64,000 bases of DNA from Ruminiclostridium josui JCM 17888 (GTDB lineage Bacteria > Bacillota > Clostridia > Acetivibrionales > DSM-1351): assembly GCF_000526495.1 (NCBI RefSeq), contig NZ_JAGE01000001.1, forward strand, positions 2,910,001 to 2,974,000. The letters are read 5' to 3'. A program made the position numbers and the translations under genes. Positions 6,520 through 28,391 of the stretch are shown here, one piece after another. The notes beneath the pieces are model-generated. The model was not told where the DNA came from and ran no database searches. It worked only from the letters and a program-made list of their open reading frames with translations. Position 1 is the stretch's first letter; the number at the start of each line of letters is the position of its first letter.

Positions 6520-7428
6520 ATGTTGCAAACTATTTTAATAGATAAAGATATATCTATTAACGACAAAGAGTGTTTCGATAAATATTTTGAAACAGCTGAT
6601 GTCCTTGCATCTGAAATGACTTTTACAAACTTTTTCATGTGGAAGGATTACTATAAAATAAGATTCAGAATAATAAATGATTTTTTATGCATAATGTCAG
6701 TAAGGGATAATTTAACTCCTTTTTGCTTCTTCCCAGTAGGAGACTATAAAAAAGGAGAAGAATTAAAAAAGACTATATATACAATAAAGGAGTATTTTGA
6801 TTCAGAAGGATGGAAATTAATTTTTTCAAGAGTCACTAAACAACAAATGGGAATTCTTGATGAACTTGGAATAGAGTATAACGCTACAGAAGATAGAGAC
6901 AATGCCGATTATGTATATACTGTGAAAAGTTTGTCAACATTAGCCGGAAAGAAGCTTGACGGCAAGAGAAACCATATTAACAAGTTCAAGAAACTCTACA
7001 GTTATGAGTATGAGAAAATATCACCATTAAATATAAAAGACTGTAAGAACATTGTAGAAAAATGGTACAGCCAGAGAGGTCAAGATAATGAAAGCCTTAC
7101 TCATGAAAGAACAGCAAACTATCAGCTCCTTGACAACTATGGATTACTTGGGCTAAAAGGTGCATTAATCAGGGTTAATGGCGAAGCAGAGGCTTTTACG
7201 GTTGGGGAACAGCTTAATAAAAATACAGCAGTTATTCACGTCGAAAAGGCAAACCCTGGAATTCACGGTATTTATACAGTAATAAATCAGCAGTTTATAA
7301 ACAATGAATGGCTCCATATGGAATATGTAAACAGAGAACAAGATCTGGGAATTCCAGGATTAAGAAAGGCAAAATTATCCTATAATCCTGATCATTTAAT
7401 AGAAAAATATACAATAGAAGTTTCCTAA
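6520..7428 (+). CDS. DUF2156 (GNAT-like, LPG-synthase C-terminal type) protein
   Basis: A 302-residue soluble protein matching the DUF2156 family, related to the C-terminal aminoacyl-transfer domain of phosphatidylglycerol lysyltransferase (MprF). Recognisable segments are EMTFTNFFMWKDYYKIRF near the N-terminus, KKLDGKRNHINKFKK in the middle and VNREQDLGIPGLRKAKLSYNP near the end. No membrane segments are present, so it is not a full MprF. The substrate is unknown. It lies 31 bases after the peptidase and ahead of the gap promoter. Confidence 0.75.
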   Translation: MLQTILIDKDISINDKECFDKYFETADVLASEMTFTNFFMWKDYYKIRFRIINDFLCIMSVRDNLTPFCFFPVGDYKKGEELKKTIYTIKEYFDSEGWKLIFSRVTKQQMGILDELGIEYNATEDRDNADYVYTVKSLSTLAGKKLDGKRNHINKFKKLYSYEYEKISPLNIKDCKNIVEKWYSQRGQDNESLTHERTANYQLLDNYGLLGLKGALIRVNGEAEAFTVGEQLNKNTAVIHVEKANPGIHGIYTVINQQFINNEWLHMEYVNREQDLGIPGLRKAKLSYNPDHLIEKYTIEVS

Positions 7429-15585: not shown

Positions 15586-17895
15586 ATGTTTTTTAAAAGA
15601 AAAAAAGTTATAAAGCCGGCGCAGTACAAAACATTGGTTGATATAATTAACAAGAAAGATTTTTCTATGTTTTCTGATTATGAGTTGAAGAAATTAATTA
15701 GTACTTATAGAAATAACTATTCCCAGTATTTTAATAATAACAATAATTCAAACATTGACCATAATCAGCAGTTTGTTAATGAATACATGACTGAATGTTA
15801 TGCAATTACCAAAGAGATTTGCAGGAGAGTCTTATCTGTTAATCCCTATGATTCACAATTGTTGACGGGAATAGCTCTATATTTTGGAAAAATTGCAGAA
15901 CTACCAACAGGAGAGGGAAAAACCCTTGCGGCAGTGTTTCCAGCAGTATTAAATGCCCTAAAGGGAAAAGGTGTTCATATCTTTACATTTAACGATTACC
16001 TTGCAAAAAGAGATGCCCAATGGATGCTGGGAATATATGAATTTTGGGGATTGAAAGCGGCGTATGTTCAAGAGAACATGGACAGGCTTCAAAGAAAAAA
16101 TGCATATTTGGCTGATATAACCTACGTTACCCCCAAAGAAGCAGGTTTTGATTATTTAAAGGATTCCATAGTTTATCATAAAGATGAAATTGTACATAGG
16201 CCATTCAACGCCGTAATTGTTGACGAGGCAGATGCAATTCTTATTGATGAAGCCAGAATACCTTTGGTTATTGCAGGAAATACTGGCAATCAGCACCAAA
16301 TAGATAGCAGACTTCTAGAACTGGTGGGGTTATTAAGGCGGAATATTGATTACATGACTGATGAGAACAGCAGAAATGTGTATTTAACTGAAAAAGGAAG
16401 TTCTCTTGTGGAAAATTATCTTGGCTGCGGCAATCTGTACAGCAGCAAGAATGTAGAAACGCTTACAGACATAAACAACCTTCTTCATGCAAAAGTCCTT
16501 TTAAAACAAGATATTGATTACATTATAAAAGACGGACAAATCGAAATTATAGACGAATTTACCGGAAGAGTTGCAGATAGAAGAAAATGGGACTATGGCC
16601 TACAGATGGCCTTGGAAGCTCTCCGAGGAATTAAATGCACAGCCAGTAACAGAATACTGGGGAAAATATCAATTCAGAACTTCGTAAGCTTATATCCTGA
16701 AATGTCAGGAATGACGGCAACTGCAAAGTCGTCTGAAGACGAATTTAGAAGTACGTATAAACATGATGTATATGTTGTCCCTCCAAATAAAAAATGTATT
16801 CGTGTTGATTATGATGATTATGTTTTTACCCACAAAGAAGCAAAATACAATGCTGTAGTTAAAGAGGTATGTGCCTGCCATAAAATTGGGCGTCCTGTAC
16901 TTATAGGGACTTCTAATATAAAGGAATCAGAGATGCTGGCGACTATGCTCAAACAACAGGGGATAGAATGTGTTGTATTAAACGCAAAAAATGACGAAGA
17001 GGAAGCGAAAATAATCGCTCTTGCAGGAAAGCTTGGAGCTGTTACCGTTTCAACTAATATGGCAGGGCGGGGAGTAGACATAAAGTTGGGCGGAGAGGAT
17101 TCTCCGGAAGAAAGAAAAAAAGTTTTGGAATTGGGAGGCCTTTATGTTATAGGTATTAGCAGAAATGAGTGTGTCAGAATAGACAATCAGTTGAGGGGTA
17201 GGGCAGGAAGACAGGGGGATCCCGGCTCTTCACGTTTTTTTGTATGCTTGGAAGACGATTTACTAGTGCAATTCGGTATAAAAAAGGTTATTCCATCAAA
17301 ATATTATGGATTCAGGCAAGGGGAAAGGATTGATGACAGAAAGCTGTTGTCACTTATATGTCATATACAGAGAGTAGTCGATGGCCAGAATTTTGAGATA
17401 AGAAAAACATTGGCGAAATATTCATATCTCCTTGAATGGCAAAGAAGGACATTTATGAAAAGCAGGTTTGACGTCTTGTCTTGCAATAAACCAGGGCTTT
17501 TGGCCATTGAGAAAAAAGAAATGTATAAAGAACTGTGCATAAAGTACGGAAAAGAAAGAGTTGATGAAATTCAGAGAAGAATATCTCTTAATTGTATGGA
17601 TGAGGTATGGTATGACTTTCTTGAATACTGCGAAAACATAAAGGAAGGAATAAATCTGGTATCAGCAGGCAGAAAGGACCCTGTGGACGAGTTTAACAGA
17701 CTTAGTATAAATAAATTTGAACACCTTGAGAAAGAAATACATGATAAAATACTCCATACTCTTGAAAATACTGATTTTTCCATGGATGACAGTGAACTTG
17801 TTGATAAGGGACTGCAAACTCCTTCGGCCACTTGGACGTATATAATTAACGACAGCATCAAAGTAAAAAATTTCTCGATTTTTAGCAGATTATAA
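15586..17895 (+). CDS. Accessory SecA-type preprotein translocase ATPase (SecA2-like)
   Basis: A 769-residue SecA homologue. Walker A is AELPTGEGKTLAAVFPA (about residue 105) and the DEAD region is VDEADAILIDEARIPLVIAG; housekeeping SecA usually has DEVDSILIDEARTPLI. The helicase motifs VSTNMAGRGVDIKLGG and QLRGRAGRQGDPGSSRFF are also present. It is shorter than housekeeping SecA (about 840-900) and lacks the C-terminal cysteine-rich zinc motif, both features of accessory SecA2 proteins. AGGAGG-like TATGGAGG precedes the ATG. It follows galT-galK by 18 bases, an odd partner. No secY2 or recognisable dedicated substrate lies beside it, although several secreted proteins are encoded within 10 kb. 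Confidence 0.85.
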   Translation: MFFKRKKVIKPAQYKTLVDIINKKDFSMFSDYELKKLISTYRNNYSQYFNNNNNSNIDHNQQFVNEYMTECYAITKEICRRVLSVNPYDSQLLTGIALYFGKIAELPTGEGKTLAAVFPAVLNALKGKGVHIFTFNDYLAKRDAQWMLGIYEFWGLKAAYVQENMDRLQRKNAYLADITYVTPKEAGFDYLKDSIVYHKDEIVHRPFNAVIVDEADAILIDEARIPLVIAGNTGNQHQIDSRLLELVGLLRRNIDYMTDENSRNVYLTEKGSSLVENYLGCGNLYSSKNVETLTDINNLLHAKVLLKQDIDYIIKDGQIEIIDEFTGRVADRRKWDYGLQMALEALRGIKCTASNRILGKISIQNFVSLYPEMSGMTATAKSSEDEFRSTYKHDVYVVPPNKKCIRVDYDDYVFTHKEAKYNAVVKEVCACHKIGRPVLIGTSNIKESEMLATMLKQQGIECVVLNAKNDEEEAKIIALAGKLGAVTVSTNMAGRGVDIKLGGEDSPEERKKVLELGGLYVIGISRNECVRIDNQLRGRAGRQGDPGSSRFFVCLEDDLLVQFGIKKVIPSKYYGFRQGERIDDRKLLSLICHIQRVVDGQNFEIRKTLAKYSYLLEWQRRTFMKSRFDVLSCNKPGLLAIEKKEMYKELCIKYGKERVDEIQRRISLNCMDEVWYDFLEYCENIKEGINLVSAGRKDPVDEFNRLSINKFEHLEKEIHDKILHTLENTDFSMDDSELVDKGLQTPSATWTYIINDSIKVKNFSIFSRL

Positions 17896-17981: not shown

Positions 17982-18686
17982 ATGATACGAATTTCCCTAT
18001 GCGATGATGAAACCCAAATTACTGAAACATTAGCCGCTAACATAAAAGACATAAGACCTGATATAGAAGTACTTTCCTTTGATTGTGGAGAGAATTTGCT
18101 TTACAGCAAGTACCTGTACAATGATATTGTATTACTGGATATTGAAATGAAAGGAATAAACGGTATTGAAACAGCCGAAGAGCTTCGCAAAGGCGGTTAT
18201 GAGGGAATGATAATATTTCTCACATCTCACAAGGAAATGGTATTTGATTCTTTTCGGGTCAAGCCGTATAACTATATTGTAAAGCCCATTGACATAGACA
18301 AAGTAAACAATATTCTCAACAATGCCATAAATGAAGTTATTGACAGGAAAACTACTCATTTTGAAGCCGTATTTAATAATCATACTTTTAGAATTCCAAT
18401 AGAGGATATTTACTACTTTGAGAGTAATGGAAGAAAAATAGATATTCATTCAAAAAACGGTACAATTACTATTTTGGGGAAAATGAATCAAATAGAAGCC
18501 TCTCTCAGAAACAAGCAGTTCTTTAGATGTCATAAGGGTTATCTTGTAAATCTTGAGCACGTTTGCGAATTTTCAAATAATGAGATTATTTTGACAAATA
18601 ACCAGAGAGTTTTAATTAGCAGATTAAAAATTAGCTTGTTCAAGGAGGCTTTTAAGGCGTTTATGAAAGGAAATATAAAATGCTAG
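17982..18686 (+). CDS. LytTR-family response regulator (AgrA/ComE-like)
   Basis: Two-domain regulator (234 residues). The receiver domain (1-120) has the phosphoacceptor in VLLDIEMKGINGIE, the switch residues in FLTSHKE and the lysine in YIVKPIDI. The LytTR DNA-binding domain (about 130-232) is marked by YYFESNGRKIDIHS and FFRCHKGYLVNLEHV. Regulators of this type usually answer peptide sensors and bind pairs of short direct repeats. AGGTGA precedes the ATG. The kinase gene overlaps its end by 7 bases, and the peptide gene begins 1.5 kb downstream. Confidence 0.92.
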   Translation: MIRISLCDDETQITETLAANIKDIRPDIEVLSFDCGENLLYSKYLYNDIVLLDIEMKGINGIETAEELRKGGYEGMIIFLTSHKEMVFDSFRVKPYNYIVKPIDIDKVNNILNNAINEVIDRKTTHFEAVFNNHTFRIPIEDIYYFESNGRKIDIHSKNGTITILGKMNQIEASLRNKQFFRCHKGYLVNLEHVCEFSNNEIILTNNQRVLISRLKISLFKEAFKAFMKGNIKC

Positions 18687-20008
18687 AAATTTTGGGGAAC
18701 AGCCTAATTGACTTGATTTCAAGTATATTTGAAATATTGATTTTTGTTTTTATGATTTCAATTTTTTTAGACTTTACCGAAAGAGCAAAAAAAAATGTAA
18801 TATTGTATTTTGTTATATACGGATTACTTAAAGTTGCTAAAATCATTTTTCCTATTGTATTTTTAGTTGATTTCGTCACTTCATTATTCGTACTCTTTTT
18901 TGTTTTTACTGCTTTTAAAGGGAACTTTGCACATAAAATATTTGCATTTAGTATAGCAATTTGTATTAACTATGTTGTTGATATTTTTATTATCTCATTT
19001 ACAAATATGGGATTTAACTATAATTTGTTTTTCAGCACATTATCAGGAGGAATAAGGGGAATATGGGTTACAGTAATAAAAATAATAATGGTTATACTTG
19101 TATATATTCTCCTAAGGAACTTTGCAACTGACACAACATTAAAAATAGACATACTTTCATCTGTTCAGACATTAATTCTTATCATGCTTCCCGCCTTCAG
19201 CTTTGCTACAATCACAATTCTTGACTGGGGAGTAAGAAATTTCGTAGATATACCCATAAATACATCTGCTTTTCTGCTTATAGCATCTTTATGTACTATA
19301 ATATACAACGTTATAGTAATGATTTTAATTGATAAGATGATTCTTAATAAAAAATATAAACATCTAAATGAAATTTCGCAAGCTCAGCTGCGAACTCAGT
19401 TTAATCATTATGAACAGATAATGGATAAAAATCAGGAAACCAGAAAACTAAAGCATGATATGAAAAATCACCTGAGACTCATTAGAACCCTGATTGAAAA
19501 TAATGATATAGACCAAGCAAAGGGGCTCCTTGACGAAATCGAGGACACAATGCGAGGTTTAGATCTTGAAATAAGCAGTGGTAATAGTATCACAGATGCA
19601 ATATTAAACGAAAAGAACAAGTTGGCCCATAACTTGGGGATAAAATTCGAGTTTTCCGGGATATTGCCAAGGGAGAACTTTATTAATCCATTTGATATCA
19701 GTACAATTTTTTCAAACGCATTGGATAATGCTATAGAAGCAGCAGTGAAATCCAATGATTCTGAACGATTTGTCAAGATTTTCACACACATTCAAGGTAA
19801 ATGCCTGTTTATTCTAATTGAAAATTCAGTTGAAAAGGATATAAAAATTACAGGCAAAGAGATTGAAACTACAAAGCAAAACAAGGAACATCATGGTTTC
19901 GGGCTTAAAAATATCAATGATAGTGTGGAAAAATACGGTGGTAGTCTAAGTATCATGTGTGAAAACAAAGTATTTAAGTTGGAAATATTACTTAATATTA
20001 AAATATGA
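18680..20008 (+). CDS. AgrC/ComD-like sensor histidine kinase
   Basis: A 442-residue kinase. About six or seven hydrophobic segments fill residues 1-215. The dimerisation box carries the phospho-histidine in KLKHDMKNHLRLIRTLIEN (about residues 258-276). A GHKL ATPase domain follows, with the N box SNALDNAIEAAV and a late glycine box HHGFGLKNINDSVEKYGG. This layout is the peptide-quorum-sensing class (AgrC, ComD, VirS). It overlaps the regulator gene and ends 130 bases before a double-glycine peptide gene, its most likely ligand. Confidence 0.92.
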   Translation: MLEILGNSLIDLISSIFEILIFVFMISIFLDFTERAKKNVILYFVIYGLLKVAKIIFPIVFLVDFVTSLFVLFFVFTAFKGNFAHKIFAFSIAICINYVVDIFIISFTNMGFNYNLFFSTLSGGIRGIWVTVIKIIMVILVYILLRNFATDTTLKIDILSSVQTLILIMLPAFSFATITILDWGVRNFVDIPINTSAFLLIASLCTIIYNVIVMILIDKMILNKKYKHLNEISQAQLRTQFNHYEQIMDKNQETRKLKHDMKNHLRLIRTLIENNDIDQAKGLLDEIEDTMRGLDLEISSGNSITDAILNEKNKLAHNLGIKFEFSGILPRENFINPFDISTIFSNALDNAIEAAVKSNDSERFVKIFTHIQGKCLFILIENSVEKDIKITGKEIETTKQNKEHHGFGLKNINDSVEKYGGSLSIMCENKVFKLEILLNIKI

Positions 20009-20077
20009 ACATATACATCTTATGACATAATTAAGACATGTTATGCAAAAAATATTGAATATAACTGTAAATATAAT

Positions 20078-20125
20078 AAACTGTATTTGGTTGAAGTTTA
20101 GACATTGCCAAATACAGTTTTTTTT
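20078..20125 (+). terminator. Terminator or attenuator directly before the peptide gene
   Basis: A perfect 13-bp stem (AAACTGTATTTGG at 20078-20090, CCAAATACAGTTT at 20108-20120) is followed by a T run to 20125. The AAGGAGG site of the peptide gene starts at once after it. It either ends the kinase transcript or, if the peptide promoter lies upstream, attenuates the peptide. ATAAACTGT (20076-20084) resembles the reverse complement of a LytTR half-site, and AACTGT also occurs 16 bases earlier. Confidence 0.7.
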
Positions 20126-20138
20126 AAGGAGGATTTTT

Positions 20139-20294
20139 ATGAGTAAGAAAAACGTTTGTATGGAAATTAAGGCAGATCAATTTGAAAGTTTAAACAACGA
20201 AGAGGCTATGTACATAGATGGTGGTATTGATTCGCCAAGGCAATGCGTAACAACTATTATTTTAGGAATAATCAAAATTATAAATTATTTTTAG
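20139..20294 (+). CDS. Double-glycine leader peptide precursor (signal or bacteriocin-like)
   Basis: A 51-residue precursor. The leader ends ...SLNNEEAMYIDGG and matches the double-glycine consensus, with L at -12, E at -8, I at -4 and G at -2 and -1. Cleavage after GG (residue 29) would release a 22-residue hydrophobic peptide with one cysteine (start IDSPRQC, end INYF). A strong AAGGAGG lies 7-13 bases before the ATG at 20139; a longer frame from 20043 runs through the terminator hairpin and was discarded. Its neighbours are the sensor kinase upstream and a C39-peptidase exporter downstream, the machinery that processes such leaders. Whether it is an autoinducer or an antimicrobial cannot be told from sequence. 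Confidence 0.8.
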   Translation: MSKKNVCMEIKADQFESLNNEEAMYIDGGIDSPRQCVTTIILGIIKIINYF

Positions 20295-20340
20295 TGACTA
20301 TTGATTTTTGTAGGAATAGAAGGTGGAATAAATTGTAAGT

Positions 20341-20595
20341 TTGTCTTTTGTAAATAATGAACCGGATTGTATGGACAAAGCCCGTACTTCGTTTATATTA
20401 GGCATAGTTGATACTGTGGCTTGGTTGTTGCCTATTATAGGGATTCCGGTTTCGATTGTGGGACTGATATTAGGGATACTTGGGATAAAATCGACTAAAA
20501 GATGGATGTCAGTTGTAGGTATTATACTTTCCAGTATTTTTCTGGTTGCTGCAATAATAAATGTAATAATTGGAGCTTTAAATAAACTTGGTTAA
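20341..20595 (+). CDS. Small two-helix membrane protein in the peptide locus
   Basis: An 84-residue protein with two long hydrophobic stretches (about residues 20-48 and 54-80) rich in I, L, V and G, similar in layout to DUF4190-type proteins. The start is uncertain: TTG at 20341 is used here, but AGGTGG (20321-20326) is better placed for a rare ATT at 20332, and ATG at 20371 gives a 74-residue form. It lies 46 bases after the peptide gene, the usual place for an immunity protein. That role is an inference. Confidence 0.6.
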   Translation: MSFVNNEPDCMDKARTSFILGIVDTVAWLLPIIGIPVSIVGLILGILGIKSTKRWMSVVGIILSSIFLVAAIINVIIGALNKLG

Positions 20596-20613
20596 GCTCA
20601 AAGGAGAATCCAA

Positions 20614-21012
20614 ATGGTATTATCAGCAGTAGAAAAGGACTATCGATTGAGAAATGTCCTTACTTTAAGAAAGAAAATGACAAGTCAAGAGATTATTTTT
20701 GAAATTATAAAACTAATGAAATTTCTTAAAGAAAATGGACTAGAAAAGGCTGGCACAATAACAACGGTAACATTTTCAATAGAGATGCAAAATGGAGTAC
20801 CTTTGATAGATATGGAAATACTTGTTCCGCTGTCAAAAAGGATAACCATTTCCAGTGAATATGTTTTTAAACCTATTTTTCATATGGTTAATGCGGTGTG
20901 TATTTTACAAGAAAGTGAACAGGAAACAAGTAAAATCCATAACTTTTTGTGCAGAAATATCTATGACAAACTAAACATGAACTCACAGCAAAAGGATTTC
21001 CTTCTTGCTTGA
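20614..21012 (+). CDS. Small soluble protein of unknown function in the peptide locus
   Basis: A 132-residue protein with no membrane segment or signal. The strand pattern GTITTVTFSIEMQNGVPLIDMEILVPL recalls the small GyrI-like/DUF5085-type effector-binding fold, a memory-based impression that has not been checked. AAAGGAG precedes the ATG. It starts 18 bases after the two-helix protein and ends before a terminator, so it belongs with the peptide transcript. Its job is unknown; sensing or immunity are possible. Confidence 0.6.
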   Translation: MVLSAVEKDYRLRNVLTLRKKMTSQEIIFEIIKLMKFLKENGLEKAGTITTVTFSIEMQNGVPLIDMEILVPLSKRITISSEYVFKPIFHMVNAVCILQESEQETSKIHNFLCRNIYDKLNMNSQQKDFLLA

Positions 21013-21102
21013 AAATATGATGTATTTAATTCATTAAGCTTTTCTAAGGTATCGATTTTACCGATACTCATTTCTTTTTACAACTTATATTGTATTCTTT
21101 GA

Positions 21103-21141
21103 AAAGGCATTCAGGTTTCTAATAAGAAGCTGAATGCCTTT
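21103..21141 (+). terminator. Hairpin ending the peptide transcript
   Basis: AAAGGCATTCAG (21103-21114) pairs perfectly with CTGAATGCCTTT (21130-21141). A smaller hairpin, GTATCG...CGATAC with T-rich sequence after it, lies just upstream at about 21048-21067. Together they separate the peptide genes from the exporter genes. Confidence 0.6.
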
Positions 21142-21254
21142 CATCTTTCTAAAGAGATTTTACAAACTTCAGATTTTTTCTTCTATGTATCAAACAAATA
21201 TGTTAAACTATGTAATTAAATAGTAGAATTTGAGAGTTAAAAAAATTCATACCA

Positions 21255-21416
21255 ATGTTTATTGCTATATTAGGATTATATCTTTTAGATATATTTTATT
21301 TTAGACGTGACGAATTCAGAATCAGTTATGTAATAATTATTTTAATAACTTGTTTTGCTGTTGTGAGCATATCAAGTATTGCAAATACAAATAAAGATAA
21401 TAATGGAGTTAACTAA
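21255..21416 (+). CDS. Short membrane protein coupled to the C39 exporter
   Basis: A 53-residue open frame: MFIAILGLYLLDIFYFRRDE, a second hydrophobic segment (SYVIIILITCFAVVSISSIA) and a polar tail. Its stop TAA overlaps the exporter ATG by one base (taATG), so translation is probably coupled. No good ribosome-binding site is seen ahead of its ATG, which lowers confidence. Two short membrane segments suggest a small membrane subunit or immunity peptide. Confidence 0.5.
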   Translation: MFIAILGLYLLDIFYFRRDEFRISYVIIILITCFAVVSISSIANTNKDNNGVN

Positions 21417-23617
21417 TGCAAACCCTATTTAAACGCTATTATTGTGTCAAACAACATGACATCACAGATTGCGGAGCAGCTTGTCTGGCTACTATCAGCA
21501 AGCAGTACGGCTTCAAAACATCAATAACAAAGATAAGAGAAGCAGCTGGCACCGACAAACAAGGTACAAATGCATATGGATTGATAAAGGCAGCTGAAAG
21601 TCTAGGTTTCACAGCAAAAGGAGTGAAGGGCAATCAAGAGGCCTTTTTTTCTGAGTTTCCTCTTCCATGTATAGCACATGTTGTCGTGGAAGGTACATTG
21701 CTTCATTATGTTGTTATACATAAAATAACTAAAAAACAGGTTTTGGTTGCTGACCCGGGAAAGGGCATTGTAGAGTATACGCCGGAGGATTTTTTTAGAA
21801 TATGGACAGGTGTACTTATTCTAATGGTTCCAAATGTTTCTTTTAGCAAGGGTAATGAAACCAAAGGGTTATTTTCAAGATTTTACAGTCTGCTTTTGCC
21901 GCAAAAGAAACTAATAATTAATATATTTTTAGCATCTTTAATGTATACTGTATTAGGAATTTTGGGTTCATTTTATTTTAAATTTTTACTTGATGATATT
22001 TTGCAATACAATCTGGAAAAGACCTTGCATGTCATATCAATAGGTATTATTTTGCTGTATCTTTTTCAGACGCTATTAGGTGCATTTCGCTCTCACATGG
22101 TACTGTACTTGTCACAAAAAATCGATATCCCGCTTATATTGGGCTACTATCAGCATGTTCTTGGACTTCCCATGAACTTCTTCAGCACAAGGAAGGTTGG
22201 AGAAATTATTTCAAGATTTATGGATGCATCAAAGGTAAGAGATGCAATTTCAGGTGCTACTCTTACAATTATGATTGACACATTAATGGCACTGGCGGGA
22301 GCAATTATACTCTATATGCAGAATCATACACTTTTTCTGATAACTTTTATGATAGGAGTAATATACGCGATTATTGTTTTTGCATTTAATAAGCCAATTA
22401 AGAAAGTAAATCAGGAGCAAATGGAGGAAAATGCACAACTTACTTCTTATCTTGTTGAATCATTAAATGGAATTGAAACAGTAAAGGCCTTTAATGCTGA
22501 GGATGAAGCAGCGATAAAAACCGAAGCAAGGTTTGTAAAGCTCCTCAAATCTATATTCAAAAGCGGTATAATTAATAATGTACGTTCATCAATTACATCC
22601 TTCACTGCACTGGCCGGAGGCGTAGTTATCTTGTGGGTAGGTGCATGGAATGTAATAAAAGGCAGCATGTCGGTAGGACAGCTTTTAACTTTTAATGCGC
22701 TCCTGGTGTATTTTCTTGATCCCATAAAAAACCTCATAAATCTACAGCCAATGCTGCAAACCGCAATAGTAGCGTCCGACCGTCTGGGAGAAATTTTTGA
22801 CCTTGAGTTGGAAAAGAGTAAAAATGAAAGGGAGAAAATTAAACCCGTTGATTTAAAAGGAGATATTTCTTTTAAAAATGTTGATTTCAGATATGGAACA
22901 CGTTCTCTGGTATTAAAGAATATTGATTTTACTATAAAGCAGGGTGAAAAAATTGCTTTGGTAGGGGAAAGCGGCTCAGGTAAAACTACGCTGGTAAAGC
23001 TTTTATTGAACCTGTATACATGGGAAAAAGGTGAAATCACAATAAAAGACTACAATATAAAGGATATATCCTTTGATTATCTTAGAGAAAGGCTTGCCTA
23101 TATCTCTCAGGATATATTTATGTTCAGCGGAACAATCCGGGAAAATCTTACTTTAGGTAACCCCAATATAAATATGGAGGAAATTGTTGAGGCATGCAGA
23201 ATGGCGAAAGCACATGATTTTATAAATAAGCTTCCAATGAGGTATGAAACTTATCTTGAGGAAAACGGTGCAAATTTATCGGGAGGGCAAAAGCAAAGGC
23301 TTGCAATAGCTAGAGCTATATTGAAAAAACCTGACATATTTATAATGGACGAAGCCACAAGCAATCTGGATTCAATTACTGAGAAGGCAATAGAGAGAAC
23401 GCTGGAAACTGTTTGCAGTGGTGTAACAACTATTATAATAGCCCATAGATTAAGCACTATTAAACGCTGTGACAGAATATATGTAATGGAGGAAGGCAGC
23501 ATTATTGAACACGGCAGCCACCAGGAGCTTATGAAGCTTGGAGGTAAATATTTTGAATTATGGCAGGGTCAGTTGCCCGAAACAGATGCATATTCACTGA
23601 CAGGAGGTAAACTCTAG
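21416..23617 (+). CDS. C39-peptidase bacteriocin/peptide ABC exporter
   Basis: A 733-residue fused protein that cuts double-glycine leaders and exports the peptide. The N-terminal C39 protease (1-130) has the catalytic cysteine in QHDITDCGAACLA, the histidine in LLHYVVIHK and the aspartate in VADPGKG. Membrane domain: about 165-450. ATPase domain: Walker A VGESGSGKTTLVKLL (about 520), signature LSGGQKQRLAIARA, Walker B IFIMDEATSNLDS and switch histidine IIAHRLST. The organisation is that of ComA/LagD. The ribosome-binding site GGAG lies inside the end of the preceding short ORF. The HlyD-like gene starts 1 base after its stop. Confidence 0.95.
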   Translation: MQTLFKRYYCVKQHDITDCGAACLATISKQYGFKTSITKIREAAGTDKQGTNAYGLIKAAESLGFTAKGVKGNQEAFFSEFPLPCIAHVVVEGTLLHYVVIHKITKKQVLVADPGKGIVEYTPEDFFRIWTGVLILMVPNVSFSKGNETKGLFSRFYSLLLPQKKLIINIFLASLMYTVLGILGSFYFKFLLDDILQYNLEKTLHVISIGIILLYLFQTLLGAFRSHMVLYLSQKIDIPLILGYYQHVLGLPMNFFSTRKVGEIISRFMDASKVRDAISGATLTIMIDTLMALAGAIILYMQNHTLFLITFMIGVIYAIIVFAFNKPIKKVNQEQMEENAQLTSYLVESLNGIETVKAFNAEDEAAIKTEARFVKLLKSIFKSGIINNVRSSITSFTALAGGVVILWVGAWNVIKGSMSVGQLLTFNALLVYFLDPIKNLINLQPMLQTAIVASDRLGEIFDLELEKSKNEREKIKPVDLKGDISFKNVDFRYGTRSLVLKNIDFTIKQGEKIALVGESGSGKTTLVKLLLNLYTWEKGEITIKDYNIKDISFDYLRERLAYISQDIFMFSGTIRENLTLGNPNINMEEIVEACRMAKAHDFINKLPMRYETYLEENGANLSGGQKQRLAIARAILKKPDIFIMDEATSNLDSITEKAIERTLETVCSGVTTIIIAHRLSTIKRCDRIYVMEEGSIIEHGSHQELMKLGGKYFELWQGQLPETDAYSLTGGKL

Positions 23618-23618
23618 C

Positions 23619-25496
23619 ATGAAGGAAGTACTGGTTGACATAAATGAACTTACGGATAGCCGAGAAATGTACCATTCAAAGCCTCATCCCTTCGTGTGGA
23701 TATTTACATATATTTTAATGGGGTTGATTGTAACAGCTGTAATATGGGCAGCTTTCAGTAAAAAGGAAATAGTAGTGAAGGCCCATGGACAAGTAAGGCC
23801 AGAATCAGGAATAAGTACTGTCAGAAATATTCTGGAAGGAGAACTGGAAAGTACTCATTACAAACAAGGGATGACAGTAAAGGCCGGAGATATTCTATAC
23901 ATTATCAAACACGACAAATTGCTAATGGAAAGAGAATCCGCAGAAGAAAAGCTTAAAGAGCTGGAAAACGAGCTGGAAAACCTTAAAATATATAGAAACT
24001 GTATTACTACGGAAGAAAACCATTTTGATTCAATAAATGAGCCTGTATATTATGAAAAAGTAAGGAAACTTCTGATGGATTTAAGATTTTCTAAAACAGA
24101 TGCAGAATATAAAACTACAAGGCTTAGTGAAGAAAAGATTCTGAATAGTACACAACTGGACAAAAATCTTAAAGAAATAGAATACTTAAAAAAGTACATA
24201 AAATCCTTGGATAATAATAAAAACTATTTAAATTCGGTAAATGAACTGGAAAAGCAATACAAGCAAAAATATGATAAGTACCTCATAGCAAAGGCAGAAA
24301 TAGAAAGAAAATATGACCAACAAGCTAATGATATTAAAAGTAACAGCCTAGATGCCATGAAGCAATCATTGGAAGAGGAAAAAACTCAGTTAAAGGCATA
24401 TGAGACACTGAAAAAAAGTGTCAGTGAATCAAAAAATAATTTTTCATCCGGTGACAGATATTCGTATCTTTACACGGAGTATGAAAATAGATTGAACTTA
24501 CTGAAAAATACATATGATGAGAAAAAGCGAATTTATGAAGCATATCTTTCTCTTAGCGGAATAGCAGTTACAAAATCTGAATTGGAAGATGCACGTGTGC
24601 AGATGCAGAATGCGCAAAGTGAGTATACATCATATAAAAGTAAGTTTTTATCAGAATTGGAATATAACATTAATAGCACTGAAATTAGCATAAAGGAAAA
24701 GGAAAGTAAGATTTCTGGCACCCAGGACAAACAGGGGCTTCTAAATTTAAACGACAAGGACAGGAAAAACAGCTTGAAAGCATTGTATTTACAGGAGAGA
24801 AATGCTGCAGCTCAGGAAATAGACAGTTTAACCGATACAGTGGAAACCCTAAGACAAAAAAATGTACTTTCTGATGCAGAACTAAAAACTATAACAGATG
24901 CTGACGGTGATAACGAAGACTCATTGGATTACTCATTGGTTGAAAGAACAAAGGTCCAGGAATTAGTTGCTGCTGATGAAAAGATTAAAGAAGTAACAGA
25001 TAGTATTACAGGAGTTAAAGATAATATAAAAAAACTGCAGCTAAGTATAAATAATGCCATTGTAAAGGCCAGTGTAGGTGGAGAGGTTAACATAATTACA
25101 GAAATATACCCTGGAGATTTGGTGGCTGCAGGTACTGAAATATTAACAATAATACCTAATACCAACTCAGCATTTAAAATGCAGATAACTGTAAGTAACA
25201 AAGACATTGGTGAAATAAATATAGGGGATACGGTTAAATACAATTTTGCAGCTTTGCCTTACAGAGAATACGGACAAGCAGCAGGAAAAATAACAAGTAT
25301 ATCAAAGGACGCCGTAAATATTGAAAACGGCCAAAGCTACTATAATGTTGAAGCTACAGTTCCGGGAACAAAAATGATAGGCAGTTCCGGAAGGCAGGGA
25401 GAAATAAAGGCAGGGATGATATGTGAAGCAAATGTAATAACAAAGCAAAAGAGCTTTCTACGTTATTTTCTTGAAAAGATAAATTTGCTTGACTAA
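23619..25496 (+). CDS. HlyD-family adaptor of the peptide exporter (unusually long)
   Basis: Membrane-fusion-type protein (625 residues) expected to bridge the ABC exporter and the outside. One membrane segment (about residues 29-48) is followed by a lipoyl-like half, a very long coiled-coil region (about 100-480, rich in K, E, Q and L) and the second lipoyl plus beta-barrel part (about 480-610; NAIVKASVGGEVN, IGDTVKYNF). Gram-positive ComB-type adaptors are typically about 450 residues, so the coiled coil is extended. It lies 1 base after the exporter and 46 bases before a TolC-like gene. Confidence 0.88.
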   Translation: MKEVLVDINELTDSREMYHSKPHPFVWIFTYILMGLIVTAVIWAAFSKKEIVVKAHGQVRPESGISTVRNILEGELESTHYKQGMTVKAGDILYIIKHDKLLMERESAEEKLKELENELENLKIYRNCITTEENHFDSINEPVYYEKVRKLLMDLRFSKTDAEYKTTRLSEEKILNSTQLDKNLKEIEYLKKYIKSLDNNKNYLNSVNELEKQYKQKYDKYLIAKAEIERKYDQQANDIKSNSLDAMKQSLEEEKTQLKAYETLKKSVSESKNNFSSGDRYSYLYTEYENRLNLLKNTYDEKKRIYEAYLSLSGIAVTKSELEDARVQMQNAQSEYTSYKSKFLSELEYNINSTEISIKEKESKISGTQDKQGLLNLNDKDRKNSLKALYLQERNAAAQEIDSLTDTVETLRQKNVLSDAELKTITDADGDNEDSLDYSLVERTKVQELVAADEKIKEVTDSITGVKDNIKKLQLSINNAIVKASVGGEVNIITEIYPGDLVAAGTEILTIIPNTNSAFKMQITVSNKDIGEINIGDTVKYNFAALPYREYGQAAGKITSISKDAVNIENGQSYYNVEATVPGTKMIGSSGRQGEIKAGMICEANVITKQKSFLRYFLEKINLLD

Positions 25497-25542
25497 TGTT
25501 GTTAAAGAGTAAAATTTACTACAGGCTATGGGAGAGAATATA

Positions 25543-26766
25543 ATGTTTATAAAGAGACTTTGTACGGTATTATTAGCAGTATCACTGATGACAGCGTCTA
25601 TAAGTACTACTGGAGCAGCTTCGGTGGTGTCCCCTGGAACTTGGAGTATAGGGGATAGCTTTAACCTTGTGTCGGGTACGGGAAACCAGGCAAATTATAC
25701 ATATGACGAAATGTGTAATTTATATTTGAATAATTATTACAATGTTCAAGGTACAGAAATAGATATAGAAAACAGTAATTTACTTTATCAGCAATATTCT
25801 GTGGAGTTTGATAAAATCAATAATGATATTGCAAGCATAAAAAAACTCATTGACAAAGACAAGGATAATGTTGAGTATCAACAGAAGCTTGGTGAGTTAA
25901 TAACACAGAAGGCAGAACTGTATGTAAACAAAGAAACCAGTATTATAACCTATAATAACTCTTCACGATATCGTGATATACAGCGTGCTTCACAAATATC
26001 AGAATTCAGAGACAATATATTTAAGACGAAACTTATATATGAAAAGAGTTTGATTCAGAAAACCATGGCTGAATACGCCAAATTGCAAGCAAATACAAAG
26101 GAAATTAGCAAATCAAAAGATATGGCCTTTCAGTCAGATATAGACATATATAATGCTGATTATGACTATTACATTAGCCAGCAGGAGTTACTCACACAGA
26201 AAGTCAACTCGAATATGGAAAATTTATTAAGTAGCTGCGGTATAGATATGTCAAGGGCTTTAACAATTAAAGTTACTTTAGCACCAATCAGAGCTATTTC
26301 TCTAAAAAAATTTTCTGACATAGAGAAAAGCTTTTACTTAAATGATTACAAAAATATGCAGATGGGGGAAAGGCTAAGAATACTTGAGGGGAAAATAAGT
26401 ATATTAAAGGAGTATTATAAGGATTCCTCAAACGAGGTAAAACTTGCTGTTAACGAAAAAAAACAGGCAGAACTTGAAGCAAGGAGATGGCTTATTGAAA
26501 GAAGAGCTTTACTCCAGAATTATTATTCTGACTATAAAAATAAATACTATGAATTTAATATAAAAGAAAAAAAGGCAAATGCACTGTATCAAAAGTATAT
26601 AATACTACTCAATAAATACAACTACAAACTTGCAACCGAGCTATCCTTAAAGGAAGCTGAAGTAAATTACAAAATTGCCGCCCAAGAAGTTTGGGACAGC
26701 CTTTTCGGGTATGTAGAAGCACTCGGAAAAATAGAGAAGGCAGTAAGCGGTAATGTTAGTCCTTAA
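25543..26766 (+). CDS. Secreted helical TolC-like protein of the export locus
   Basis: A 407-residue protein with a signal peptide (MFIKRLCTVLLAVSLMTASI, cut near GAA). The mature part is almost all predicted helix, with heptad patterns and internal similarity of two halves (stretches beginning YDEMCNLYLNNYYNVQG and KSFYLNDYKNMQMGERL), as in the outer-membrane-efflux (TolC) family. ATG 25543 follows GGAGAG at 25531-25536. No lipobox or LPXTG was seen. Placement after the ABC and HlyD genes completes a type-I-secretion-like trio, surprising for a presumed single-membrane Firmicute. A perfect hairpin follows. Confidence 0.7.
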   Translation: MFIKRLCTVLLAVSLMTASISTTGAASVVSPGTWSIGDSFNLVSGTGNQANYTYDEMCNLYLNNYYNVQGTEIDIENSNLLYQQYSVEFDKINNDIASIKKLIDKDKDNVEYQQKLGELITQKAELYVNKETSIITYNNSSRYRDIQRASQISEFRDNIFKTKLIYEKSLIQKTMAEYAKLQANTKEISKSKDMAFQSDIDIYNADYDYYISQQELLTQKVNSNMENLLSSCGIDMSRALTIKVTLAPIRAISLKKFSDIEKSFYLNDYKNMQMGERLRILEGKISILKEYYKDSSNEVKLAVNEKKQAELEARRWLIERRALLQNYYSDYKNKYYEFNIKEKKANALYQKYIILLNKYNYKLATELSLKEAEVNYKIAAQEVWDSLFGYVEALGKIEKAVSGNVSP

Positions 26767-26835: not shown

Positions 26836-26858
26836 CTGTAAATAATTTTGTGTATGAA
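26836..26858 (+). repeat. Left terminal inverted repeat of the IS
   Basis: Starts CTGTAAATAATTTTGTG and is identical over 23 bases to the reverse complement of 28369-28391. Confidence 0.9.
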
Positions 26859-26919
26859 ACATAGGAAATACTCTTTTATGGTTAAGAATTTAAGTATTAA
26901 CCAGAAAGGAATATTTTTT

Positions 26920-28137
26920 ATGAGCGTATTATCAAAAGAGCTAGTACAGGAAATAATTGCGGAGAATGATTTTAAAAATCCCGGAGAAATAATCTCCTTT
27001 TTAAAGGAGGCATTTAAAGATGTTCTTCAGGAAATGCTTGAAGCCGAAATGGATGTTTCTCTTGGGTATTCCCGAGATGAGTCAAGACATAAAATTACCG
27101 ACAACAGTAGAAACGGTTACTCAACAAAAAAACTAAAGAGTGAATTCGGCCCTGTACAGATTGATATTCCAAGGGACAGAAAAGGTGAGTTTGAGCCTAA
27201 AATAGTTCCCAAGTACAAAAGGGATGTATCAGGAATTGAGGATAAGGTGATTTCTCTTTATGCCCGAGGCATGTCTACCAGAGATATTCACGATCAGGTT
27301 AAAGAGCTTTATGGAATAGATATTTCTGCTGAAATGGTTAGTAAAATAACTGAAAGAATCCTTCCTGAAATAAAAGAATGGCAAGGTAGGCCCCTTGAGG
27401 CTATCTATCCTTTTGTATTTATGGATGCTATCCATTACAAGGTAAGAACTGATGGACAAATAGTAAATAGAGCTGCTTATGTTGTTATGGGTGTAGATAT
27501 TTCAGGTAAGAAAGATATCCTTGGAATATGGATTGGAGAGAACGAATCCTCCAAGTTCTGGTTAGGTGTGTTAAATGACCTTAAAAACAGAGGTATAGAA
27601 GATGTACTCATATTCTGTGTGGACGGACTTACAGGGCTCAAAGAAGCTATTGCAGCTGCTTTTCCAAAGTCAGAAATTCAAAGGTGTATAATTCATCAAC
27701 TAAGAAACTCATTTAAATATGTTTCATATAAGGATTTGAAGGCTTTTTCAAAGGATTTTAAAACTGTCTACACAAGCCCCAGTGAAGAAATAGCATTAAA
27801 CCGGTTTGAAGACCTGAAAAACAAATGGGGCAAGGATTATCCATATGCATTTAAAAGTTGGGAAAACAATTGGGAAGTTTTATCACCATATTACAAGTTC
27901 CCAGAGCAGATAAGAAAAATAATATATACAACCAATATAATTGAAGGATTGCATCGGCAGTTCAGAAAAGTTACTAAGACAAAATCCGTTTTTCCTTCTG
28001 ATACTTCTCTTGAAAAGATGCTTTATTTGGCATCAATGAATGTAATAAAAAAATGGACTCAACGATACCGGAATTGGGATCAGGTCATGAGTCAATTAAT
28101 GATTATGTACGATGGGAGACTGGATAACTATATTTAA
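26920..28137 (+). CDS. IS256-family transposase
   Basis: DDE transposase (405 residues). The catalytic aspartates are visible in FVFMDAIHYKVR and FCVDGLTGLKEAI, and the glutamate in TTNIIEGLHRQFRK. The family C-terminus (SLEKMLYLASMNVIKKWTQRYRNWDQ) is complete. ATG 26920 follows AGAAAGGA at 26903-26910; an upstream frame from 26848 begins inside the terminal repeat. No frameshift or truncation. Confidence 0.95.
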   Translation: MSVLSKELVQEIIAENDFKNPGEIISFLKEAFKDVLQEMLEAEMDVSLGYSRDESRHKITDNSRNGYSTKKLKSEFGPVQIDIPRDRKGEFEPKIVPKYKRDVSGIEDKVISLYARGMSTRDIHDQVKELYGIDISAEMVSKITERILPEIKEWQGRPLEAIYPFVFMDAIHYKVRTDGQIVNRAAYVVMGVDISGKKDILGIWIGENESSKFWLGVLNDLKNRGIEDVLIFCVDGLTGLKEAIAAAFPKSEIQRCIIHQLRNSFKYVSYKDLKAFSKDFKTVYTSPSEEIALNRFEDLKNKWGKDYPYAFKSWENNWEVLSPYYKFPEQIRKIIYTTNIIEGLHRQFRKVTKTKSVFPSDTSLEKMLYLASMNVIKKWTQRYRNWDQVMSQLMIMYDGRLDNYI

Positions 28138-28240
28138 AACATAGAGCAAAGCCCCCACCGCCCTGAAGGGCTCGTCCTCATTGCCGGACGGGCTAGACCT
28201 TCAAAATACAGGTATAAGCATAGAAATACCATTATTAAAT

Positions 28241-28297
28241 AATTATTGCCAGATTTAATCTAAATAATGCATAAAAATAGAATAATCTGGCAATAAT
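28241..28297 (+). terminator. Hairpin at the end of the IS
   Basis: AATTATTGCCAGATT (28241-28255) pairs perfectly with AATCTGGCAATAATT (28283-28297). It lies inside the element, after the transposase, and may stop transcription leaving or entering it. Confidence 0.55.
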
Positions 28298-28368
28298 TTG
28301 AAATATAGTATTAAATTTTTGAGAGTTAATACTTTGGAAATACTTAGCCATCATTGAGTTTGAAAGGC

Positions 28369-28391
28369 TTCATACACAAAATTATTTACAG
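28369..28391 (-). repeat. Right terminal inverted repeat of the IS
   Basis: Reverse complement identical to 26836-26858 over 23 bases. Confidence 0.9.

What the first reader, a model, noticed from the sequence alone, without database searches (positions are those of the whole stretch)
17982..26766. Complete peptide signalling and export locus with its own sensor, peptide and three-part exporter
Seen: a LytTR regulator, AgrC-like kinase, double-glycine precursor, three small accessory proteins, C39-peptidase ABC exporter, long HlyD-like adaptor and secreted TolC-like protein, all on one strand. Known: C39 exporters cut double-glycine leaders, and AgrC/ComD-class kinases sense exported peptides. 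Inference: the kinase senses the 22-residue product or the locus makes a regulated antimicrobial. A TolC-like third component in such a locus of a Firmicute is unusual.
Basis: partly seen in the sequence, partly recalled or inferred. Interest (0 to 1): 0.75.

Follow-up and report, generated by a model that had tools for sequence, protein, structure and literature searches.

The report
Self-controlled peptide export locus, TolC-like outlet
A clostridium carries a conserved gene set that probably makes, senses and exports its own small peptide, using an exporter that adds a TolC-like outlet although the cell has no outer membrane and, it seems, the outlet has no membrane barrel.

Summary
RR-HK-peptide-TM84-p132-ABC-HlyD-TolC-like is collinear in 5 of 11 Ruminiclostridium genomes, under purifying selection (dN/dS 0.06-0.19). 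G003 has a divergent version with another short peptide after the kinase and three extra double-glycine peptides. A LytTR-type direct repeat lies upstream of the peptide gene, with no second close copy in these genomes, so the locus most likely induces only itself; sensing by the kinase is inferred. Corrections: the third small protein (21255-21416) is a window-only remnant. OEP-family matches are common in this order (38 of 58 genomes; at least one is an adaptor), and TolC-like proteins are already published for monoderm pumps. Less ordinary: a TolC-like protein, apparently without barrel strands, encoded with a PCAT1-type peptide exporter and a 625-residue HlyD; it follows long HlyDs in 9 of 11 loci, short ones in 0 of 8. 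Second, p132 belongs to a DUF5085/GyrI-like group recurring beside C39 exporters; DUF5085 proteins elsewhere sequester membrane toxins before export. Best reading: an autoinduced class-II-like peptide locus with cytoplasmic self-protection and a wall-spanning three-part exporter. A new variant of a known kind; function untested.

The parts
17982..18686 (+). response regulator, receiver + LytTR DNA-binding domain (234 aa)
   Evidence: LytTR 8.4e-24, Response_reg 1.6e-13; dN/dS 0.095
18680..20008 (+). AgrC/ComD-class sensor kinase (GHKL ATPase; six predicted hydrophobic stretches)
   Evidence: HATPase_c_5 6.4e-26; hydropathy; 50% identical to the G003 kinase
20015..20045 (+). LytTR-type direct repeat ACATCTTATG-N11-ACATGTTATG, 21-base period, upstream of the peptide gene
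   Evidence: one site with 0-1 mismatch in each of 6 of 11 congeners, all at this place; none in the other 5
20079..20119 (+). stem-loop (12-13 bp) then a U run, directly before the peptide's ribosome-binding site; intrinsic-terminator-like
   Evidence: -15.2 kcal/mol, z -4.66; stem invariant in 5 species. If transcription starts inside the stem the shorter form is weak (z -1.38)
20139..20294 (+). double-glycine precursor peptide (51 aa: 29-residue leader, 22-residue product)
20341..20595 (+). TM84: small membrane protein, weak DUF4190 likeness; possible immunity protein (inferred)
   Evidence: 92-99% identical in 4 relatives, no match in the G003 locus
20614..21012 (+). p132: DUF5085/GyrI-like soluble protein, C-terminally shorter than relatives; predicted cytoplasmic sequestering or immunity protein
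   Evidence: papers PMC10434224, PMC12744356
21101..21143 (+). conserved RNA hairpin between the small genes and the exporter genes
   Evidence: z -6.03 for 21040-21150; conserved in 5 species
21255..21416 (+). 53-aa ORF: N-truncated remnant related to a second, decayed locus; not a conserved accessory gene
   Evidence: absent here in 4 relatives; 87% aa identity; 88.7% DNA identity over 21237-21697 to L195
21416..23617 (+). PCAT1-type peptidase-C39 ABC exporter (733 aa)
   Evidence: 4ry2, 9.3e-275; name PCAT1 from PMC6959990/recall
23619..25496 (+). long HlyD-type adaptor (625 aa)
   Evidence: 8dck chain C, 3.3e-16
25528..26766 (+). TolC-like (OEP-related) helical protein with a hydrophobic N-terminal stretch (signal-like), no visible beta-hairpin inserts

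Best explanation
A self-contained, autoinduced peptide locus. Shown: gene content, conserved order, selection, regulatory box, family relationships. Inferred: the C39 domain of the PCAT1-type exporter cuts the leader after Gly-Gly and exports the 22-mer. The mature peptide outside activates the AgrC/ComD-class kinase; the phosphorylated LytTR regulator binds the direct repeat upstream of the peptide gene and raises the peptide-TM84-p132(-exporter) transcript. The peptide, or cargo peptides that share the exporter as in G003, acts on membranes; p132 holds the hydrophobic peptide in the cytoplasm and TM84 may protect from outside. The long HlyD and the TolC-like helical protein extend the exporter through the thick wall or S-layer zone. 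Likelihood of the steps: C39 export of this peptide 0.9; autoinduction through this kinase 0.65; p132 as sequestering protein 0.5; wall-zone duct 0.55; antimicrobial action of the 22-mer itself 0.35.
For: Collinear locus in 5 of 11 congeners and a divergent one in G003. dN/dS 0.06-0.19. LytTR-type box once per genome at 0-1 mismatch, only ahead of the peptide, in a 94% conserved promoter region. Exporter nearest to PCAT1. GG leader in all 6 genomes. G003 carries three further GG peptides between p132 and the exporter. p132 group matches DUF5085 (4 of 10, best 1.6e-6) and GyrI-like (2 of 10, best 3.8e-6); 13 of 24 genes found by its own profile in 60 genomes have a C39 domain within 6 kb. DUF5085 proteins TipE and ExiAB neutralise glycine-zipper membrane toxins in the cytoplasm (PMC10434224, PMC12744356, passages). 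TolC-like gene follows long HlyD in 9 of 11 loci, short HlyD in 0 of 8.
Against: No experiment, transcript or mass-spectrometry data. Peptide below the Pfam cut-off, with a single glycine in the product and so no glycine zipper: not the DUF5085 partner seen in print. Zippers elsewhere (5 of 10 p132-linked peptides kept by a leader filter v 0 of 5 others) are reached by 49-319 of 1000 shuffles each. p132 is below the DUF5085 cut-off where it matches; the window member has no Pfam match, was not found with PF16895 in its own genome, and lacks about 25 C-terminal residues. p132 relatives also stand alone or in a T7SS-like locus (10 of 28 contexts without exporter genes in view). TolC-like profile v E. 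coli TolC: no significant match. Structure models were poor (pLDDT 42.9 and 53.2). In G006 a long HlyD has no TolC-like neighbour.
Confidence: 0.6

Rival explanations
1. The 22-mer is only a pheromone. The cargo bacteriocins that G003 still has were lost in this lineage, or lie elsewhere; the exporter now serves signalling alone.
For: G003 has a short GG peptide right after the kinase region plus three longer GG peptides after p132, which are missing there in the five. Own genome has a Bacteriocin_IIc peptide above the cut-off (31.5 bits) beside a decayed exporter copy. No second LytTR box at 0-1 mismatch.
Against: TM84 and p132, immunity-like, stay under purifying selection (0.077, 0.19). Costly three-part exporter kept.
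Confidence: 0.35
2. The peptide is the bacteriocin itself, and the kinase senses another signal.
For: Hydrophobic, weakly cationic 22-mer (pI 8.2, GRAVY 0.93); immunity-like neighbours; Bacteriocin_IIc 5.2e-4.
Against: Short for a class II bacteriocin (recalled); first GG peptide after the kinase in all 6 genomes, as pheromone genes are (recalled); box directly upstream.
Confidence: 0.2
3. The last protein is not a duct part but an unrelated secreted coiled-coil protein whose OEP match is coiled-coil noise.
For: No OEP match for the window protein; other weak coiled-coil matches (Apo-CIII, laminin); no match to E. coli TolC.
Against: 6 of 10 relatives match OEP, best 1.3e-11; hhalign to four clostridial OEP proteins E 4.5e-5, probability 69, control with the window HlyD none; the G009 match falls on the same OEP half as in other clostridial OEPs; in every locus where its upstream gene was seen it follows a long or contig-cut HlyD.
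Confidence: 0.12

Closest known systems
PCAT1 / peptidase-containing ABC transporters (Clostridium thermocellum; PDB 4ry2; PMC6959990)
   Same: C39-TMD-NBD exporter, best match among solved structures; double-glycine substrate
   Different: PMC6959990 has no hit for HlyD, TolC, adaptor or operon in its main text; here both extra parts are encoded with the exporter
Three-component class II bacteriocin / competence loci (ComCDE, blp, pln; recalled)
   Same: GG pheromone-like peptide, GHKL kinase, LytTR regulator, C39 exporter plus accessory protein, direct-repeat box
   Different: TolC-like third part, 625-aa adaptor, DUF5085-like protein; ligand not tested
TolC-like proteins of monoderm Firmicutes (PMC8809574)
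   Same: OEP-family protein encoded with adaptor and pump in cells without outer membrane; that paper also saw an omission in the beta-barrel of a Clostridioides difficile model
   Different: those are presented as efflux pumps; here the partner is a C39 peptide exporter
DUF5085 immunity proteins TipE (PMC10434224) and ExiAB (PMC12744356)
   Same: p132 group matches DUF5085 and GyrI-like; soluble, beside hydrophobic peptides
   Different: those serve type VII secreted LXG toxins; p132 is truncated, below cut-off and in C39 loci
HlyBD-TolC type I secretion (E. coli)
   Same: ABC + HlyD + TolC-like set of parts
   Different: no outer membrane, no visible barrel, C39 with GG-leader substrate, adaptor 147 aa longer than 8dck chain C (478 aa)

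Membership tests
PCAT / C39 bacteriocin exporters (TIGR01193) | C39 peptidase + ABC membrane + NBD above curated cut-off | tested here: met
   715 v 523.85 bits; C39, ABC_membrane, ABC_tran over cut-offs
PCAT / C39 bacteriocin exporters (TIGR01193) | cleaves and exports the neighbouring GG peptide | not testable with these tools
   needs biochemistry
Class II double-glycine peptides (PF10439) | GG leader pattern | tested here: met
   leader ends ...EEAMYIDGG; GG kept in all 6 genomes
Class II double-glycine peptides (PF10439) | score over the curated cut-off | tested here: not met
   20.4 v 27.1 bits; 18.2 in the genome search
Peptide-sensing LytTR/GHKL two-component systems | polytopic GHKL kinase next to LytTR regulator, direct-repeat box at the target promoter | tested here: met
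   that LytTR proteins bind such repeats is recalled
Peptide-sensing LytTR/GHKL two-component systems | kinase responds to the locus peptide | not testable with these tools
   inferred from position only
TolC / outer membrane efflux proteins (PF02321) | homology to OEP | tested here: met
   family level only: 6 of 10 members at E <= 10, best 1.3e-11; G009 orthologue 23.3 v 22 bits, 19.6; window protein itself no match
TolC / outer membrane efflux proteins (PF02321) | transmembrane beta-hairpin in each repeat | tested here: inconclusive
   leans to not met: G009 match covers profile 81-165 where the best stretches of E. coli TolC and CusC start at 2 and 6; helix-short loop-helix there in a low-confidence model and alignment. 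So called TolC-like, not an outer membrane factor
HlyD adaptors | HlyD_3 over cut-off; TIGR01843 over cut-off | tested here: inconclusive
   HlyD_3 53.6 v 22.2 met; TIGR01843 160.4 v 208.65 not met
DUF5085 (PF16895) | score over cut-off 30 | tested here: not met
   G003 member 23.2 bits; 4 of 10 members match, best 1.6e-6; window member none

The most novel reading that the evidence does not exclude
Monoderm clostridia have a dedicated three-part, wall-crossing peptide secretion machine: PCAT1-type ABC, long HlyD and a barrel-less TolC homologue. Since it needs no outer membrane and no BAM, it would answer how TolC-like proteins assemble in monoderms. With it travels a general self-protection device: DUF5085-like proteins that hold membrane-active peptides in the cytoplasm before export, used by both C39 and type VII systems.
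Probability: 0.4. Interest if true: 0.7.

Novelty: new variant of a known kind. Interest (0 to 1): 0.5.

Why it matters
It joins a well-understood peptide exporter with a part thought to belong to outer membranes, and offers a testable answer to the published question (PMC8809574) of how TolC-like proteins assemble in monoderm Firmicutes without BAM: they may have no barrel to insert. It also suggests a shared way of handling membrane-active peptides before export in two unrelated secretion routes, and gives a compact candidate autoinduction circuit in Ruminiclostridium.

Tried and rejected
Structure of p132: pLDDT 53.2, Foldseek gave nothing under E 0.001. PDB profile searches of the p132 and TolC-like families: nothing useful. 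Glycine-zipper test: 5 of 10 p132-linked against 0 of 5 other peptides, but each is reached by 49-319 of 1000 shuffles; the leader filter also dropped peptides, the window's own and those of L195 among them. SecA2 (15586-17895) as part of the system: rejected, since 4 of 5 locus-free congeners have a close copy and G003 has the locus without one. Third accessory protein: rejected as conserved. G354's secreted 355-aa protein after its long HlyD as TolC-like: unconfirmed, counted as a miss. Rows dropped before the HlyD count: G022 (contig ends 298 bases after HlyD; I had first counted it, giving 0 of 9), G063 (HlyD frame ends at 398 aa, contig begins within the ABC gene), G155 (HlyD cut by contig end; TolC-like present), and the separate exporter clade L196-L199, L204, L186. 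In one search the 300-base identity steps for G002 are out of register and were not used. Literature: six Ccel locus tags, no paper (tags recalled); on Ruminiclostridium bacteriocin or quorum-sensing papers gave only listings with no use of that genus name among the 12 shown; PMC12184118 (a PCAT and its cargo in Faecalibacterium, passages) has no TolC or HlyD. I ran no search of viral or metagenome collections.
Full report
Observation. Family searches name them: LytTR response regulator, GHKL sensor kinase, double-glycine peptide, small membrane protein TM84, soluble protein p132, a 53-aa ORF, C39 ABC exporter, HlyD adaptor, and a last helical protein with a signal-like hydrophobic N-terminus (the 53-aa ORF was not scanned). 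The window lies in a Ruminiclostridium genome, unnamed; one related locus is named R. papyrosolvens C7.

Conservation. The TolC-like protein was found in 6 of 11 congeners (own included) and in none of the other 49 of 60 genomes in the first set. In five (own, G002, G005, G007, G009) the order RR-HK-peptide-TM84-p132-ABC-HlyD-TolC-like is the same and sits beside the same SecA2 gene. Mean dN/dS is 0.06-0.19 for the eight locus genes and SecA2, 0.17 for the peptide (the G005 kinase, split into two frames in its draft, was left out, so 6 pairs there and 10 elsewhere). G003 has a divergent locus at another place: RR 65%, HK 50%, ABC 84%, HlyD 61%, TolC-like 38-40% identical, another short GG peptide (a 37-codon ORF lies between it and the kinase), p132, and three longer GG peptides before the exporter.

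Regulation. A direct repeat with 21-base period, typical in form of LytTR sites (form recalled), starts 7 bases past the kinase stop, at 20015-20045. Searched over 11 congeners with up to 2 mismatches, sites with 0-1 mismatch occur once in each of the 6 genomes with the locus, all at this place, and nowhere in the other 5; the remaining 15 matches have 2 mismatches, against 27 for the reversed-pattern control. The pattern was made from these sites, so the news is the lack of a second one. The stretch 20000-20160 is 94% conserved in five species and contains a 12-13 bp stem-loop followed by a U run just before the ribosome-binding site; it may end read-through from the kinase gene or act as an attenuator, and is weak (z -1.38) if transcription starts inside it. 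A second strong hairpin (z -6.03) separates the small genes from the exporter genes.

Exporter. Among solved structures the ABC protein is closest to PCAT1 (4ry2, 9.3e-275). The adaptor matches the HlyD of 8dck (chain C, 3.3e-16). Among loci with a PCAT1-like ABC, a complete HlyD and the following stretch in view, the TolC-like family follows in 9 of 11 with HlyD of 623-635 aa and in 0 of 8 with HlyD of 389-511 aa (Fisher 0.0007, but the loci are related, so this overstates). Exceptions: G006 has a long HlyD and no such gene; G354 has an unconfirmed secreted protein. Dropped rows are in Tried and rejected. The family reaches another genus: HlyD then TolC-like in 4 of 4 loci of three genomes, with the ABC gene before them in 3, each time cut by the contig end. 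In a sample of 391 Clostridia genomes it was found in 8.

TolC-like protein. It is an OEP relative: 6 of 10 family members match PF02321 at E <= 10, best 1.3e-11, a G009 orthologue passes the cut-off in the genome search (19.6 bits as an isolated protein), and hhalign to four clostridial OEP proteins gives E 4.5e-5, probability 69, with no match to HlyD as control. Against: no match for the window protein itself, none to E. coli TolC. The best OEP stretch of E. coli TolC and CusC starts at profile position 2 and 6; in four clostridial OEP proteins and the G009 orthologue it starts at 81-97, and in every row listed (a cut list) at 65 or later. The missing part is where TolC's barrel hairpins lie (placement recalled). 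There the window protein has a short loop between helices, and relatives a longer stretch that looks helical. I read this as loss of the barrel, but a local match can also stop because of divergence. PF02321 matches occur in 38 of 58 genomes of the order. Of three places opened, G000 and G049 hold pairs of OEP-like genes, in G049 beside MacA/MacB-like genes, and in the own genome next to surface proteins, one with a clear SLH domain and one just under the cut-off; the third, in G006, is a MacA-like adaptor, so the 38 is an upper figure for true OEP carriers. PMC8809574 (passages) reports TolC-like proteins in monoderm Firmicutes with pumps, proposes S-layer seating, notes an omission in the barrel of a C. 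difficile model, and asks how they assemble without BAM. So the part is known; its use with a C39 peptide exporter I did not find in searches (listings; the large review PMC8277102 among them was not opened).

p132. The window member has no Pfam match; of 10 relatives 4 match DUF5085 (best 1.6e-6) and 2 GyrI-like (best 3.8e-6). PF16895 itself finds 12 of 391 Clostridia genomes at E <= 0.01, 3 over its cut-off, and misses the window's p132. By the p132 profile in 60 genomes 24 genes were found (25 rows, one gene split); 13 have a C39 domain within 6 kb and 2 more stand before an HlyD on short contigs. All 28 contexts examined, some chosen by way of the exporter: 16 with C39, 2 with HlyD, 5 orthologous lone genes, 3 beside DUF2589 genes, 1 in a T7SS-like locus, 1 at a contig end. 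In print, the DUF5085 proteins TipE and ExiAB neutralise membrane toxins in the cytoplasm, ExiB by binding the glycine zipper, and TelE's toxic end is described as weakly like bacteriocin IIc (PMC10434224, PMC12744356; passages). Of the five papers found for DUF5085 (listing), all are on staphylococci or streptococci and four name type VII secretion in title or abstract start. Hence my reading of p132 as a pre-export sequestering protein. Against it: scores below cut-off, a product without zipper, a shortened C-terminus in all five species (132-140 v 155-161 aa; a stop inside the match in G000 and G002).

Second locus. At G000 C1 about 1.567 Mb lies a decayed relative: p132 in two frames, a GG peptide over the Bacteriocin_IIc cut-off (L195 7027-7179, in an ORF of 109 aa), another GG-leader ORF of 78 aa, a 78-aa longer version of the 53-aa ORF, and only the start of the ABC gene. 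Window 21237-21697 is 88.7% identical to it, across the ORF and the ABC start, against 82-85% for relatives' ABC starts. The 53-aa ORF is therefore most likely a recombination remnant.

Verdict. Observation right; interpretation partly right. An autoinduced class-II-like peptide locus with a TolC-bearing PCAT exporter and a DUF5085-like protein: a new variant of a known kind.

Noticed in passing
window 15586-17895: Second SecA (SecA2_Mycobac, TIGR04221 over cut-off) between galK and the locus; a close copy (60% or more) is in 9 of 11 congeners, also in 4 without the locus.
   Followed up: partly
window 26836-28391: Transposase-bearing insertion element with 23-bp inverted repeats, about 70 bases after the TolC-like gene; in the 4 relatives a convergent 215-aa gene stands there instead, pentapeptide-repeat in the one scanned.
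   Followed up: partly
L195 (G000 C1 about 1.567 Mb): Decayed second peptide/exporter locus with a Bacteriocin_IIc peptide over cut-off at L195 7027-7179 and a second GG-leader ORF at 6731-6967.
   Followed up: partly
window 20320-20345: TM84 has a ribosome-binding site but no ATG at the right distance; ATT or TTG start likely, the TTG missing in G002.
   Followed up: no
L196, L197, L198, L199, L204, L186: A second exporter clade (C39 ABC 43-46% identical where seen, HlyD of about 350-382 aa) with a p132-like gene just before or overlapping the HlyD start.
   Followed up: partly
L101 8-16 kb: Two OEP-family genes of the own genome next to two Big_5 surface proteins, one with a clear SLH domain, in line with an S-layer link.
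   Followed up: no
L141, L145, L203: p132-like gene followed by two DUF2589-type proteins in 3 congeners (Pfam run on L141 only); unknown system.
   Followed up: no
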